Shown in pieces: positions 1,793-5,707 of a DNA stretch of 12,996 nucleotides. The notes under the pieces were generated by a model. It ran no database searches and was not told the DNA's origin. It was given only the letters and a program-made list of their open reading frames with translations. The position numbers and the translations under genes are program-made. Each line of letters opens with the position of its first letter. Position 1 is the first letter of the stretch. This DNA is from Thermoplasmata archaeon (GTDB taxonomy: Archaea > Thermoplasmatota > Thermoplasmata > Thermoplasmatales > Thermoplasmataceae), in assembly GCA_021797955.1 (NCBI GenBank), contig JAJZYV010000015.1, positions 1-12,996 on the forward strand. Reading direction: 5' to 3'.

Positions 1793-2074
1793 ATGAATTT
1801 AGAAATATTTGTCTCTGTGAAAACTATGGCAAGCTCAAACACTACGATACAGGATATTTTTCAAAGAGGGTTTGAGGTTGTAATATCTGTATCTGCAATA
1901 ATTATAGCACTTCTCTGGATACCTATTGCGCTGGGTTTTTTCAGTTCTGATGAACAGAAAAGATACGACTCAAAAAACAGGGTCAAATATGCAGCACTTG
2001 GAACCATAATTTATATTTTGGCAATTAGTGGTTTCATTTACGGAATATTCAATTTTATTGCTACTGGTGCATGA
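1793..2074 (+). CDS. Two-helix membrane protein, candidate VirB2/CedA1-like pilin
   Basis: 93 residues with exactly two hydrophobic segments (about 28-50 and 68-90) joined by a short polar loop, SSDEQKRYDSKNRVK, and ending almost at once after helix 2. This is the plan of VirB2/TrbC pilins and of the archaeal CedA1/TedC pilins: small, two helices, basic cytoplasmic loop, placed immediately before a VirB6/CedA-like gene. No catalytic motif is present. ATG at 1793 has AGGGA just upstream at short spacing (3 bases); ATG at 1826 (MASSNTT) is an alternative that drops 11 residues. The next gene follows after 3 bases in the same frame. The pilin call rests on size, topology and context and not on a recognised motif. 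Confidence 0.6.
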   Translation: MNLEIFVSVKTMASSNTTIQDIFQRGFEVVISVSAIIIALLWIPIALGFFSSDEQKRYDSKNRVKYAALGTIIYILAISGFIYGIFNFIATGA

Positions 2075-2077
2075 TTT

Positions 2078-3064
2078 TTGTCTTTCAACATAATATCCTT
2101 CCTATCCCCACTTGGAAGTTTTTTACTGTCAGCAGAAATAGCATCCTCGGCAGGATTATGGCAGCTCATTATTACATATGGACTTGGGCAACCGTACGCA
2201 TTTCCATACTCATCATCGGATCTTACAATTATCACACCGCTTTTTAAGCATATTACAAATGAATTGGCGATTCCCATAGCACTTTCTGCTATTTTCCTAA
2301 GTTCCATAAAAATCATGATGACACGAAAAGGCGAAGATCTGAATAGAATATTCTGGAGAATGAGTTTGGGTATTCTTCTGTTCTTTTTATCCCTGGACAT
2401 AAGTAAGTATATCCTCGAATTCTCATATCTTGTATTTAATAGTGTCTGGGCATATGGGTCAATAAACTGGATGTCCGTAATGACATCCAGTGAAATTATG
2501 TCCTATTTGAGCAATATGGCATCTGGTGGTAATACACTTTCAGCGCTTCTTCTCTCTTCAGGATATTTCGCTGCAACCTTTATACTCCTCAGTTTTCTAA
2601 TGTTAAGAGATGCACTAATCATAGTTTTCATCATTCTATTGCCGATCGTTTCATTACTTATGGTGGTTACTGAGTTATATGAGAGAATGTTACAACTATG
2701 GGTTATGTTTATCGAATTATCACTTATCCCATTCCCTATTGCTATTGCCCTATACCTTAGCTCCATTTATTCAGACGTCTTCTTTATGCATCTTGCGTTT
2801 CTTTGGGCTGCTTGTCTTATCCCTTCCATATTTATGACTAAAGGTGGTCTGTTCAGAAATCTCATGAGTTTGGATATACTATCTGGTGTTAGTCTCCTTG
2901 GAAACAGAATGCAAGTTGTCACTGATAGAATACCAAATGTACACTTGGGAAATTTTTCCGTAGGCGGAGAGCAATCTGGGAATATTGGTGGAAATAATCC
3001 CTACCATTTCAATATTAATGATCTCATGAAAAAAGATGTGGAATATAGAAGGACGATGGAATAG
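2078..3064 (+). CDS. Polytopic membrane protein, candidate VirB6/TrbL/CedA-like channel
   Basis: 328 residues. Hydrophobic segments are visible at about 4-22, 61-80, 93-123, 155-176, 178-200, 206-230 and 233-254, followed by a soluble, Gly/Asn-rich, charged tail of about 70 residues. Five to seven membrane helices plus a soluble tail, lying between a two-helix pilin and VirB4, is the layout of VirB6/TrbL in bacterial conjugation machines and CedA in crenarchaeal DNA import. There it forms the inner-membrane passage. The TTG start is supported by GGTG at 2066-2069, eight bases upstream, and no ATG occurs in frame before residue 80. The preceding TGA stop (2072-2074) is in the same frame with one codon between. 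Function is inferred from topology and neighbours. Confidence 0.6.
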   Translation: MSFNIISFLSPLGSFLLSAEIASSAGLWQLIITYGLGQPYAFPYSSSDLTIITPLFKHITNELAIPIALSAIFLSSIKIMMTRKGEDLNRIFWRMSLGILLFFLSLDISKYILEFSYLVFNSVWAYGSINWMSVMTSSEIMSYLSNMASGGNTLSALLLSSGYFAATFILLSFLMLRDALIIVFIILLPIVSLLMVVTELYERMLQLWVMFIELSLIPFPIAIALYLSSIYSDVFFMHLAFLWAACLIPSIFMTKGGLFRNLMSLDILSGVSLLGNRMQVVTDRIPNVHLGNFSVGGEQSGNIGGNNPYHFNINDLMKKDVEYRRTME

Positions 3065-3285
3065 GAGCCCCTCGATCAATACTGAGGAGAATGGTGCTAA
3101 ACGACATGTTTGATGATGATAGGACTGCTTAATGGATTTAATGATTTAAAGAAAAATGTGAAAAATTTGAGAGGTTAGATTGGTAACTATATACACAGCT
3201 TCTAAGGCTCCACAAAGATTAGCGAATTTCATTTGAGATCGTGTATTGAGGAGAGCTGGTCAATATTAAAATAGGTGAAACGAAA
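3065..3285 (+). other. Intergenic stretch inside the secretion-like cluster, no gene seen
   Basis: Only very short reading frames occur here (for example 13 codons from ATG 3091 and 18 codons from TTG 3180), none with both a good ribosome site and length. Two similar purine-rich elements, GATCAATACTGAGGAGA (3074-3090) and GATCGTGTATTGAGGAGA (3237-3254), lie 163 bases apart. A weak hairpin, CCCCTC (3068-3073) with GAGGAG (3084-3089), has one mismatch. No T-run terminator follows it. The stretch could be a leader for the downstream genes or a small RNA, but nothing here proves either. Confidence 0.4.
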
Positions 3286-3399
3286 ATGAATATTGATATT
3301 AAAAATGTTAAAATGTTAAGATACGAAAAAGGGATCTTCTTTAACCATAGATTCAACCGTACAATTATGAAGGGAGTTAGGCACGGTGGAATCGTATGA
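3286..3399 (+). CDS. Small 37-residue basic protein within the secretion-like cluster, unrecognised
   Basis: ATG at 3286 is preceded by AGGTGA (3273-3278) at seven bases, one of the best ribosome sites in the window. The frame runs 37 codons to a TGA at 3397-3399 that overlaps the next gene's ATG as ATGA. This is the standard sign of translational coupling. The product is basic: it starts MNIDIKNVKMLRYEKG and ends KGVRHGGIV, with no membrane helix, signal or known motif. I cannot name a function. It may be a real accessory component or a leader peptide that couples ribosomes into the anchor gene. The strong site and exact stop/start overlap argue that it is translated; length alone would not. 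Confidence 0.6.
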   Translation: MNIDIKNVKMLRYEKGIFFNHRFNRTIMKGVRHGGIV

Positions 3400-4085
3400 A
3401 TAATAGTGGTGATATTGGGAATTTACCCCCAAATCTAAATCACAGAGAGCGTAATGCCCGGAACCCTAATCTGGAGGTGTACGTGATTGCTATTGCCCTA
3501 ACAGCAATATTGCTAAATTTCAGCGACGATTTCATGCCTTATGTTTTAAGGATTCCGACAATAATCATAGTTGTTGCCATAATTGCTGCGGTTTCCTGTT
3601 CTGTTCTAATATCCAGGTATTTCAGAACTCGAGCAATTATTTTGGTTAAGGATAGTCATGAGACAAAGTTCAATACACTGAAAATAAACAAAGATACAGA
3701 AATTGTGGGGATAGAGGTCCTTCCACATGCAATAGGAAATATGACACTTAGGGAGCAGACCCTTTTCAAAAGTTCTTTTTCAAAAATATGGATGCGAATG
3801 CCTGATAATTTAATACTTATATCAATGAACTTCAACAATGCCGATATCCCTGTAAATGAACAAAACACCGCTATGGAATCATATTCGACCATGATAAAGA
3901 ACATTATGGGGAACACATTCTATTTTAGACACTTTATCCTTTTAAAAAGAGAGACCGGCGTTGATAAGAAAGGAAAAACCCATTCAGATATAGTTACAAT
4001 TGAAGAACAGTTAGCATCCATAGGTATGGAATTTAAGAGAATGCCCCCTTCACTTCTGGAAAAATTATGGAGGGAATTTCCTTGA
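3396..4085 (+). CDS. Membrane-anchored VirB3/PrgI-like protein with a probable VirB4 N-terminal domain
   Basis: 229 residues: a charged N-terminus (1-25), a pair of membrane helices (about 26-42 and 46-72), then a soluble domain (78-229). A short two-helix hairpin is the plan of VirB3/PrgI, which tether the ATPase. The soluble part, with 'LREQTLFKSSFSKIW', a strand 'NLILISMNF', then 'TFYFRHFILLKRE' and a closing helix 'EEQLASIGMEFKRMPPSLLE', has the pattern of the VirB4 N-terminal domain. That domain is otherwise missing from the shortened ATPase encoded next. So VirB3/PrgI plus VirB4-N appears split from the motor. ATG at 3396 has GGTGG at 3385-3389. The gene overlaps the small gene upstream by ATGA and the ATPase gene downstream by TTGA. 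The domain match is from memory of the family pattern. Confidence 0.6.
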   Translation: MNNSGDIGNLPPNLNHRERNARNPNLEVYVIAIALTAILLNFSDDFMPYVLRIPTIIIVVAIIAAVSCSVLISRYFRTRAIILVKDSHETKFNTLKINKDTEIVGIEVLPHAIGNMTLREQTLFKSSFSKIWMRMPDNLILISMNFNNADIPVNEQNTAMESYSTMIKNIMGNTFYFRHFILLKRETGVDKKGKTHSDIVTIEEQLASIGMEFKRMPPSLLEKLWREFP

Positions 4086-5452
4086 AGAAACGCTCAATAA
4101 ATCCGATCAAGGTTCGTATCTATAAATCATATTTTCACTCAAATAGATACAAATCACACATTCGAATTTCAGATTCCAAACCCGCCAATACTTTGGATAT
4201 TTCGCAGTTCATCAATGCCTTATCCGTTCCTCTAGATGTAGTATATTCACTTGATAAATTAAAAAAAGACAGTAAGATTTTTGGAAGGATAAGGGCAGCT
4301 AAAAGGGCAAACCTTATGTCTGAAAAAAAGAAGCATCCTCAGAATCCATCGCAACGCCTTGTTGCTGAAGAAAAATATGCCAGCAAAATTTATGAAATAA
4401 ATTCCAGTGAAACTGGTTCAATATATCAAGGTATATTCACAATATCACCTGAAAGTACTAATCCGGTAAAACTTAGAGAATATACCTTTAGGGTAAGGAA
4501 TTCCTTGGAGCTTATGGGTGCATCACTAAATTTGAAAAAGAGATTTCCCAGATCCTATTTGGGAAAACTAAATTCTTTTAATTTTGTAAACGCCGATACA
4601 TATCTGATTGACAGCCAATCACTGGTTTGTCTCATACCATGGTTCACTGATTCAGTTCCTGATACGTCTGGGATCTTAATCGGACTCGATTCATATTCAG
4701 GAAAACCCATCTTTCTAAACCTATGGGCAAGGTCTTCATTTAATTCCATAATCCTTGGTGAAATAGGATCGGGAAAAAGCTATTTTACAAAAACTATCCT
4801 TCTGAGAAATTTGTTATTGGATCTTGCTGACGAAATATATATTTTTGATCCAATGAATGAATATTTTTTAGGTAAAAGTCTATCGCCATATTCAGATGTG
4901 GAAATAATCTCCTTTAGTGAAGATACTGCGAACAAAATTTTATTGACATCTAACGCAAATAAAAATAAAATTATTAGAATATTTCGATTCATGGAGAATG
5001 CCAAAACCGAAAGTAATTTCCTCTTGTGTCTTTCAGAGATGTTCGATTCAATCAAAAAATCTGAATCAAAGAGAAAACTGATGATTATTGATGAGGCACA
5101 TCTTCTATTAAGATACGATAAAACCATGAAGTTGTTTGGAGAAATTGTAAGATCGTCAAGGCATTATCTTACTTCAGTTTTTTCCATATCACAGGGAATT
5201 GGTGAGTTTTTATCCAGTCAGGGTGGACAATCCATATTTGAGAATTCAATCAATGTTTTCATATTTAGAAATAAATTCTGGGAAAATCTTAAGGATGCTG
5301 GGATAGACCCCGCAGAATACGGTTATTTGGATTTTAAGAACCTCTCGGGAGGAAAAGGCGAGTCTTATTCTGAATTCTTCTATTATACAAATGGAAATTT
5401 GAGAAAACTGGCTTACATTTCAACTGACTTTGAAAAAAAATTCATAGATTAA
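4082..5452 (+). CDS. VirB4-type secretion/conjugation ATPase
   Basis: Hexameric RecA-fold motor that powers pilus assembly or DNA/protein passage in type IV secretion. In the 456-residue form, Walker A GEIGSGKS is at 226-233 and Walker B KLMIIDEAH at 332-340. A conserved Arg/Ser stretch VRSSRHY follows at 356-362, then the SQ sensor (S-I-S-Q) near 371. The stretch before Walker A (FTDSVPDTSGILIGLDSYSG) and the IFDPMNEY after it are typical of VirB4. The N-terminal membrane or VirB4-N region is absent and appears to be in the preceding gene. TTG at 4082 is preferred because GGAGGG (4069-4074) is seven bases upstream and TTGA overlaps the previous stop. ATG at 4067 would add five residues but has only a weak site. 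HerA is the nearest alternative, but the flanking motifs favour VirB4. Confidence 0.85.
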   Translation: MKKRSINPIKVRIYKSYFHSNRYKSHIRISDSKPANTLDISQFINALSVPLDVVYSLDKLKKDSKIFGRIRAAKRANLMSEKKKHPQNPSQRLVAEEKYASKIYEINSSETGSIYQGIFTISPESTNPVKLREYTFRVRNSLELMGASLNLKKRFPRSYLGKLNSFNFVNADTYLIDSQSLVCLIPWFTDSVPDTSGILIGLDSYSGKPIFLNLWARSSFNSIILGEIGSGKSYFTKTILLRNLLLDLADEIYIFDPMNEYFLGKSLSPYSDVEIISFSEDTANKILLTSNANKNKIIRIFRFMENAKTESNFLLCLSEMFDSIKKSESKRKLMIIDEAHLLLRYDKTMKLFGEIVRSSRHYLTSVFSISQGIGEFLSSQGGQSIFENSINVFIFRNKFWENLKDAGIDPAEYGYLDFKNLSGGKGESYSEFFYYTNGNLRKLAYISTDFEKKFID

Positions 5453-5455
5453 CAA

Positions 5456-5707
5456 TTATCTCTTTTCTGGAGAGATTCTCTTCTTTGTTTCTCCAAGTAT
5501 AACGGCCATTATACCGAAAGCTACAAGAACAACAACAAGAGAATAAAGACCCGGGTCTGTCCATGCATCAAAATATTCCGCCCAAGCAAAATAGTATGCA
5601 AGACCAGAAATAACGAAGAAAAGCCCTATGGCTATTGTTGCATTGTTGTAAGTGAATTTTTTCAGTATTCTGTTTAATTTTCCATTGGGTGATTTTTCTA
5701 CTTCCAT
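5456..5707 (-). CDS. Small two-helix membrane protein of unknown function
   Basis: 83 residues. A basic N-terminus (MEVEKSPNGKLNRILKKF) is followed by hydrophobic segments at about 22-42 and 55-72 and a basic tail GETKKRISPEKR. This predicts two membrane helices with both ends inside the cell. The family is not recognised. ATG at 5707 has no Shine-Dalgarno site but a TATA-like TTTAAATATG on the minus strand (5734-5743) at the distance for an almost leaderless transcript. Its stop lies three bases from the stop of the VirB4 gene on the other strand, so the two transcripts must run into each other. It may be unrelated to the secretion-like cluster. Confidence 0.65.
   Translation of the reverse strand: MEVEKSPNGKLNRILKKFTYNNATIAIGLFFVISGLAYYFAWAEYFDAWTDPGLYSLVVVLVAFGIMAVILGETKKRISPEKR

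What the first reader, a model, noticed from the sequence alone, without database searches (positions are those of the whole stretch)
1793..5452. Compact type IV secretion-like / DNA-transfer module in a thermoplasmatal-type archaeon
Seen: two-helix small protein, polytopic protein with soluble tail, small basic protein, two-helix anchor with soluble domain, and an ATPase with VirB4 Walker motifs, all on one strand with overlaps. Known: the same order and topologies (pilin VirB2, channel VirB6, VirB3/PrgI, VirB4) build bacterial conjugation machines, and the crenarchaeal Ced and Ted DNA-import systems use CedA1/TedC pilins, CedA and CedB. Inferred: this is a chromosomal DNA-exchange or secretion system of a euryarchaeal acidophile, since no relaxase, coupling protein or integrase is seen and housekeeping genes flank it.
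Basis: partly seen in the sequence, partly recalled or inferred. Interest (0 to 1): 0.85.

Follow-up and report, generated by a model that had tools for sequence, protein, structure and literature searches.

The report
Split type IV secretion-like archaeal machine
Acid-loving archaea related to Thermoplasma carry in their chromosomes a small relative of the machine that bacteria use to pass DNA to one another, here with its motor protein divided between two genes, which makes it a testable candidate for how these cells exchange genes.

Summary
The four larger genes are real, collinear and under purifying selection. Together they look like the core of a type IV secretion-like (T4SS-like) machine. 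(1) The 93-aa protein is a T4SS-pilin relative: 31 of 31 members match PF18895, the window's own below the curated cut-off. (2) The 328-aa polytopic protein ranks R388 VirB6/TrwI entries first among solved structures, but weakly. (3) The 229-aa 'anchor' and 461-aa ATPase are two halves of one protein. They are fused in 16 of 47 labelled tree rows, and a predicted fusion matches whole VirB4 behind two membrane helices. The window's VirB4 is thus split inside its N-terminal domain, a VirB3-like anchor sitting on the first half. The 'small basic protein' is not supported. Pilin-channel-ATPase order holds in 35 of 40 loci. Channel and ATPase are present or absent together in 60 of 61 genomes. Channel matches in a phylum sample all fell within the class. 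A VirD4/TraG- or HerA-like ATPase lies elsewhere in most relatives, not in Ferroplasma. DNA exchange is the likeliest function, but inferred. One 2016 paper already lists T4SS components in Cuniculiplasma; my literature searches found no account of the pilin, channel fold, split VirB4 or class-wide range. New variant of a known kind.

The parts
1793..2074 (+). VirB2/T4SS-pilin-like protein, 93 aa, two hydrophobic helices
   Evidence: PF18895 E 1.9e-4 (below cut-off); 31 of 31 family members match at E<=0.01, best 9.9e-8; NCBIfam Mbov_0395 pilin-like 27.7 bits, cut-off 40
2078..3064 (+). VirB6-like channel protein, 328 aa, about six membrane helices, TTG start
3396..4085 (+). 229 aa: two membrane helices (VirB3-like position) plus first half of the VirB4 N-terminal domain
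   Evidence: Matches positions 7-215 of a 661-position profile of 13 natural fusions, E 8.4e-9 in a set of 32 sequences
4067..5452 (+). 461 aa: second half of the VirB4 N-terminal domain plus ATPase domain, Walker A and B intact
   Evidence: Positions 222-660 of the fusion profile, E 1.8e-94; NCBIfam VirB4_plasma E 1e-23; AAA_10 over cut-off; motifs

Best explanation
The four genes encode the core of a chromosomal, lineage-kept type IV secretion-like machine that most likely moves DNA between neighbouring cells. The 93-aa protein would polymerise into a thin hollow pilus or a short stalk. The 328-aa protein would form the membrane pore at its base. The 229-aa and 461-aa proteins would assemble 1:1 into one VirB4 ring: the first supplies two membrane helices (the VirB3 role) and the first half of the VirB4 N-terminal domain, the second the rest and the ATPase that powers pilin extraction or DNA movement. 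In most relatives a soluble VirD4/TraG- or HerA-like ATPase encoded elsewhere may hand over DNA. Its absence from the Ferroplasma genomes searched suggests that the core can work without it. Shown here: family or fold of the parts, conserved order, co-occurrence, purifying selection. Inferred: assembly, a pilus, DNA as cargo, direction of transport.
Against: No function of any member is known. The channel match is weak (no Foldseek row at E<=0.001; helical proteins reach such Z by chance, as the tool warns). The window's pilin is below Pfam's and NCBIfam's cut-offs. The VirD4-like protein scores better against a HerA model (1.5e-9) than against a VirD4 one (2.7e-7) and shows no membrane helix. 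No relaxase in 37 same-family genomes (PF03432 only). The ATPase domain alone also resembles HerA and FtsK.
Confidence: 0.62

Rival explanations
1. A T4SS-like machine that exports proteins (effectors, toxins against neighbours, surface proteins) and not DNA.
For: Some bacterial T4SSs move proteins (PMC6536674 and PMC12857230, abstracts in listings). No relaxase in the 37 same-family genomes. In family f15 two of two large proteins scanned that sit upstream of the pilin are PKD-domain surface proteins.
Against: No effector or toxin gene is linked to the module in the loci read (by eye); tested archaeal relatives handle DNA.
Confidence: 0.17
2. An adhesive or structural pilus only: pilin, base and assembly ATPase, with nothing transported.
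For: The core in the window is what would be needed to assemble a VirB2-type filament; Ferroplasma lacks the VirD4-like ATPase.
Against: The VirD4-like family is kept in 45 of 61 relatives and lies next to virB4 in f3, which a mere adhesin would not need.
Confidence: 0.12
3. Part of a mobile element (conjugative plasmid or ICE), active or decayed.
For: Mollicute ICE families are the best curated matches for ATPase and pilin; distant partial ATPase matches on 28 plasmid records, Sulfolobus pNOB8 among them.
Against: Shared housekeeping neighbours in most of 32 same-family loci; no plasmid record covers 80% of the ATPase and none matches the channel; all four genes under constraint; relaxase in 2 of 61 genomes, none in the family.
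Confidence: 0.05
4. Not a T4SS at all: a HerA/FtsK-type ATPase with unrelated membrane proteins.
For: The ATPase domain alone matches HerA and FtsK structures well; the channel match is weak.
Against: The fusion aligns to VirB4 over its N-terminal domain too (about 557 residues against about 250 for HerA rows); a T4SS-pilin gene lies upstream in 35 of 40 loci.
Confidence: 0.04

Closest known systems
Ced (Sulfolobales) and Ted (Thermoproteales) DNA-import systems
   Same: Chromosomal, no relaxase; VirB2-like pilin, VirB6-like channel and VirB4-like ATPase; two proteins (CedD, CedB) supply parts of one VirB4 N-terminal domain (PMC11868833 section 9).
   Different: CedB model scores 21 bits against a cut-off of 700 in the window, and CedD does not match it. 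CedB and CedD each have their own ATPase domain, whereas here one chain is simply cut or fused. The CedA2 gene, Ups pili and DNA-damage induction were not looked for.
VirB3-VirB4 fusions and the PrgH-PrgI-PrgJ (VirB6-VirB3-VirB4) order of Gram-positive conjugation
   Same: Channel, then a two-helix protein, then VirB4, the last two partly overlapping (PMC12857230 passages); VirB3-VirB4 fusions are known in some conjugative systems (PMC12102498 passage).
   Different: PrgI ends after its short tail; here the two-helix protein also carries half of the VirB4 N-terminal domain.
Mollicute ICE conjugation module (Mbov_0395 pilin-like, Mbov_0397 VirB4)
   Same: Best curated matches of the window's pilin (27.7 bits) and ATPase (83 bits); wall-less hosts; ICE linked to chromosomal transfers (PMC6030558 passages).
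   Different: Below both equivalog cut-offs (40 and 590 bits); a mobile ICE with transposase there, a fixed chromosomal module here.
Patescibacteria T4SS
   Same: PF18895-type pilins, VirB4 and VirB6, mostly relaxase-less; pilin arrays, as in locus L101 (PMC12102498 passages).
   Different: VirB3 and VirB4 separate; those authors found no VirB3-VirB4 fusion in their set.
T4SS components listed for Cuniculiplasma divulgatum
   Same: VirB4, multipass and membrane proteins in one gene cluster, with a VirD4-family ATPase elsewhere: very likely the same module (PMC5155288 passages).
   Different: That paper gives arCOG labels only; no pilin, channel fold, split or wider range in the passages seen.

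Membership tests
Type IV secretion system (minimal VirB type) | VirB4 ATPase | tested here: met
   Fusion model matches R388 TrwK entries end to end; window halves map onto the fusion profile
Type IV secretion system (minimal VirB type) | VirB6-type channel | tested here: inconclusive
Type IV secretion system (minimal VirB type) | VirB2-type pilin | tested here: met
   31 of 31 members match PF18895 at E<=0.01; 10 of 61 genomes over the cut-off, the window's relatives not
Type IV secretion system (minimal VirB type) | VirB3 next to VirB4 | tested here: inconclusive
   Two helices in the right place on the same chain; no sequence match to a VirB3 or PrgI family was found for the 229-aa protein
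Type IV secretion system (minimal VirB type) | VirD4 coupling protein | tested here: inconclusive
   A candidate in 45 of 61 relatives, TraG-D and TrwB domains over cut-off in E-plasma, but HerA and Ced models score as well or better
Type IV secretion system (minimal VirB type) | VirB8 and other translocon parts | not tested
   No search made
Ced/Ted DNA-import system | CedB or CedD equivalog | tested here: not met
   CedB 21 bits against cut-off 700; no CedD match in the window
Ced/Ted DNA-import system | CedA/TedA and CedA1/TedC homology | tested here: inconclusive
   No PDB sequence match of the pilin or channel profile at E<=1; profile-profile comparison with CedA or TedA sequences not run
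Ced/Ted DNA-import system | Imports DNA, induced by DNA damage | not testable with these tools
   Needs the laboratory
Mollicute ICE conjugation module | Mbov_0395 pilin and Mbov_0397 VirB4 equivalogs | tested here: not met
   27.7 bits of 40 and 83 bits of 590
ICE or conjugative plasmid | Relaxase | tested here: not met
   PF03432 in 2 of 61 genomes, none of 37 in the family; other relaxase families not searched
ICE or conjugative plasmid | Mobile location | tested here: not met
   Shared neighbours in most same-family loci; no near plasmid record

The most novel reading that the evidence does not exclude
A DNA-exchange machine spread through the class Thermoplasmata, working without type IV pili, whose VirB4 motor is built from two separately translated halves, the first carrying the membrane anchor, so that anchoring and ATPase activity can be regulated apart. 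It would be the missing agent of the frequent recombination seen in Ferroplasma and its acid-mine relatives.
Probability: 0.33. Interest if true: 0.85.

Novelty: new variant of a known kind. Interest (0 to 1): 0.6.

Why it matters
Ferroplasma populations in acid mine drainage are mosaics made by frequent recombination (PMC2704941, passages). In another study the two Ferroplasma genomes were the only ones without any of the type II secretion/type IV pilus genes seen in the other acid-mine archaea (PMC3750248, passages). The Ferroplasma genomes searched here carry the pilin, channel and fused motor. If the module moves DNA, an old question becomes a gene-deletion test in culturable, harmless archaea. 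It would also add a euryarchaeal class to the Ced/Ted kind of domesticated T4SS, and natural fusions and splits show one place where VirB4 can be cut: a linker inside its N-terminal domain, with VirB3-like helices on the first piece.

Tried and rejected
Small basic protein at 3286-3399 as VirB3/PrgI: rejected; no counterpart in the L035 and L036 gaps, and no room in L037.

Programmed frameshift joining the 229-aa and 461-aa frames: the overlap is 19 nt in the window, L035 and L036 but 4 nt in L037, and from -89 to +48 nt in the other same-family split loci; not pursued.

A weak VirD4-profile hit in L105 (5521-7470) is a LonB protease.

Single origin of the fusion: the motor tree (48 rows; 31 split including the window, 16 fused, 1 unlabelled) needs five changes against 13.4 on average when shuffled, but starred branches force only one, and deep forks are open. 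All 15 outgroup rows (f3, f4, f5, f15) were labelled split, which favours fusion as derived; in f15 and f5 the first half was identified by position and topology only, its profile match not being significant. L059 was left out (contig edge); L057 was unlabelled, because its protein matches profile positions 6-99 and 222-653 only.

Exceptions to the pilin-channel-ATPase order, 5 of 40 loci: L049 (parts on another contig, G031:C23), L059 (contig end), L065 (channel on another contig, G040:C24), L071 and L072 (pilin-like genes further upstream; L101 shows five copies).

Literature: open-licence library, with capped lists in 66, 67 and 95 (20 of 39, 20 of 648, 15 of 578 shown). Only PMC5155288 was found to describe the module, by arCOG numbers (it alone holds the arCOG terms).
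Full report
WHAT IS THERE. The window comes from a Thermoplasmatales archaeon close to the acid-mine 'E-plasma'. A public contig (isolate LSA5.bin89) carries the same ATPase at 98% identity, the E-plasma scaffold at 76%; the nearest held genome, G001, shares 67% of the window's sampled words, and E-plasma (G004) is in G001's genus. Four + strand genes stand in a row: 93 aa (1793-2074), 328 aa (2078-3064), 229 aa (3396-4085), 461 aa (4067-5452). Against E-plasma (L035) their dN/dS is 0.034, 0.050, 0.183 and 0.127, against L036 0.060, 0.046, 0.209 and 0.121; against L037 synonymous sites are saturated.

PILIN. The 93-aa family has two hydrophobic helices and 13 invariant residues in 31 sequences. 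All 31 match Pfam's T4SS_pilin at E 0.01 or better, best 9.9e-8; the window's own E is 1.9e-4, below the curated cut-off. In genomes, 42 of 61 relatives match at E<=0.001 and 10 pass the cut-off; of 14 control genomes one rings, Haloferax volcanii. A search of about 5.8 billion proteins gave 180 relatives at E<=0.001, of which I saw 120; names, where given, are 'hypothetical protein' or stray labels, with Thermoplasma, Ferroplasma and uncultured Thermoplasmata as sources. By eye, many members of the window's family (f1) have short N-termini, while f3 members L070 and L073 and the f15 members carry signal-peptide-like extensions. This recalls unprocessed CedA1 against processed TedC (PMC9905601, passage).

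SPREAD AND LINKAGE. Of 61 relatives, 52 have the ATPase and 51 the channel (the channel profile was trained on some of these genomes). Nine lack both; the one disagreement, G025, has its ATPase at a contig end (L059). Of 40 loci read, 35 show pilin, channel, ATPase in order on one strand. In 32 same-family loci the window's neighbours recur: thioesterase 24, ribose-5-phosphate isomerase 20, a small two-helix protein 28, dihydroneopterin aldolase, NTPase and Trm1 21 each, UbiA 16. Four loci (L057, L064, L066, L067) share none of the seven and keep the order intact. Of 300 class genomes 103 have the pilin, in 26 of 90 genera, including family f15 outside the order. Of 12 f15 loci read, 10 show channel then VirB4-like ATPase, and the other two (L094, L098) end too early. 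Of 292 phylum genomes 45 have the channel, all within the class.

PARTNERS ELSEWHERE. A soluble ATPase of about 650 aa occurs in 45 of 61 relatives (E<=1e-10). In E-plasma it matches TrwB and TraG-D domains over their cut-offs, but a HerA model (1.5e-9) and CedB (2e-8) score better than a VirD4 model (2.7e-7). It lies about 28 kb from virB4 in E-plasma; in four f3 loci a member of the family follows virB4 directly. No match at that threshold in the Ferroplasma genomes G012 and G028, nor in G021, G022, G025, G037, G038, G042 and eight f5 genomes, although f5 genomes G041 and G058 have TraG-D matches. Relaxase PF03432: 2 of 61 genomes, both f5.

WHAT IT IS LIKE. Among curated families the window's ATPase scores best against the VirB4 of Mollicute ICEs (83 bits, E 1e-23), and the pilin against their pilin-like protein (27.7 bits, E 1.6e-6); CedB scores 21 bits. 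All are below cut-offs. Plasmid records: 28 match the ATPase, none over 80% of it; 61 match the fusion, likewise; none match the channel. It works like a minimal T4SS; it is not a member of Ced by the one equivalog test possible.

MECHANISM. See best explanation. The case for DNA rests on Ced/Ted, on a VirD4-like candidate and on the recombination seen in these archaea (PMC2704941, passages). The case against certainty is that no member has been tested.

NOVELTY. PMC5155288 (passages) lists VirB4, multipass and membrane proteins of a T4SS in Cuniculiplasma, with a VirD4-family ATPase elsewhere, so T4SS genes in the order are in print. Seven literature searches (open-licence library, some lists capped) showed me no account of the pilin, the channel's VirB6 likeness, the split or fused VirB4, or the class-wide range. 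A 2025 review's archaeal passages treat conjugative plasmids (PMC12857230).

Noticed in passing
window 5456-5707, - strand: An 83-aa two-helix protein of unknown function on the opposite strand just downstream of virB4 recurs in 28 of 32 same-family loci; Pfam gives only sub-threshold matches.
   Followed up: partly
L095:7402-12612, L090:7372-8976: In family f15 a large PKD-domain surface protein sits directly upstream of the pilin (both proteins scanned), a possible adhesin; other f15 loci have large frames there that were not scanned.
   Followed up: partly
   Followed up: no
virB4-like genes, e.g. window 4067-5452 and L054:7986-9608: The stretch between Walker A and Walker B varies from about 67 to 172 residues among relatives (window 99); the all-alpha subdomain may be reduced in the window's clade (subdomain name recalled).
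   Followed up: no
L057:7995-9605: A 536-aa fused protein matches fusion-profile positions 6-99 and 222-653, so most of the first half of the VirB4 N-terminal domain seems to be missing.
   Followed up: no
window 3065-3395: The gap between channel and anchor is about 200 nt longer than in E-plasma and unlike it in sequence; origin unknown.
   Followed up: no
L069, L070, L073, L074: A 677-700-aa VirD4-like gene follows virB4 directly in four f3 loci, and f3 and f4 genomes often hold a second member elsewhere.
   Followed up: partly
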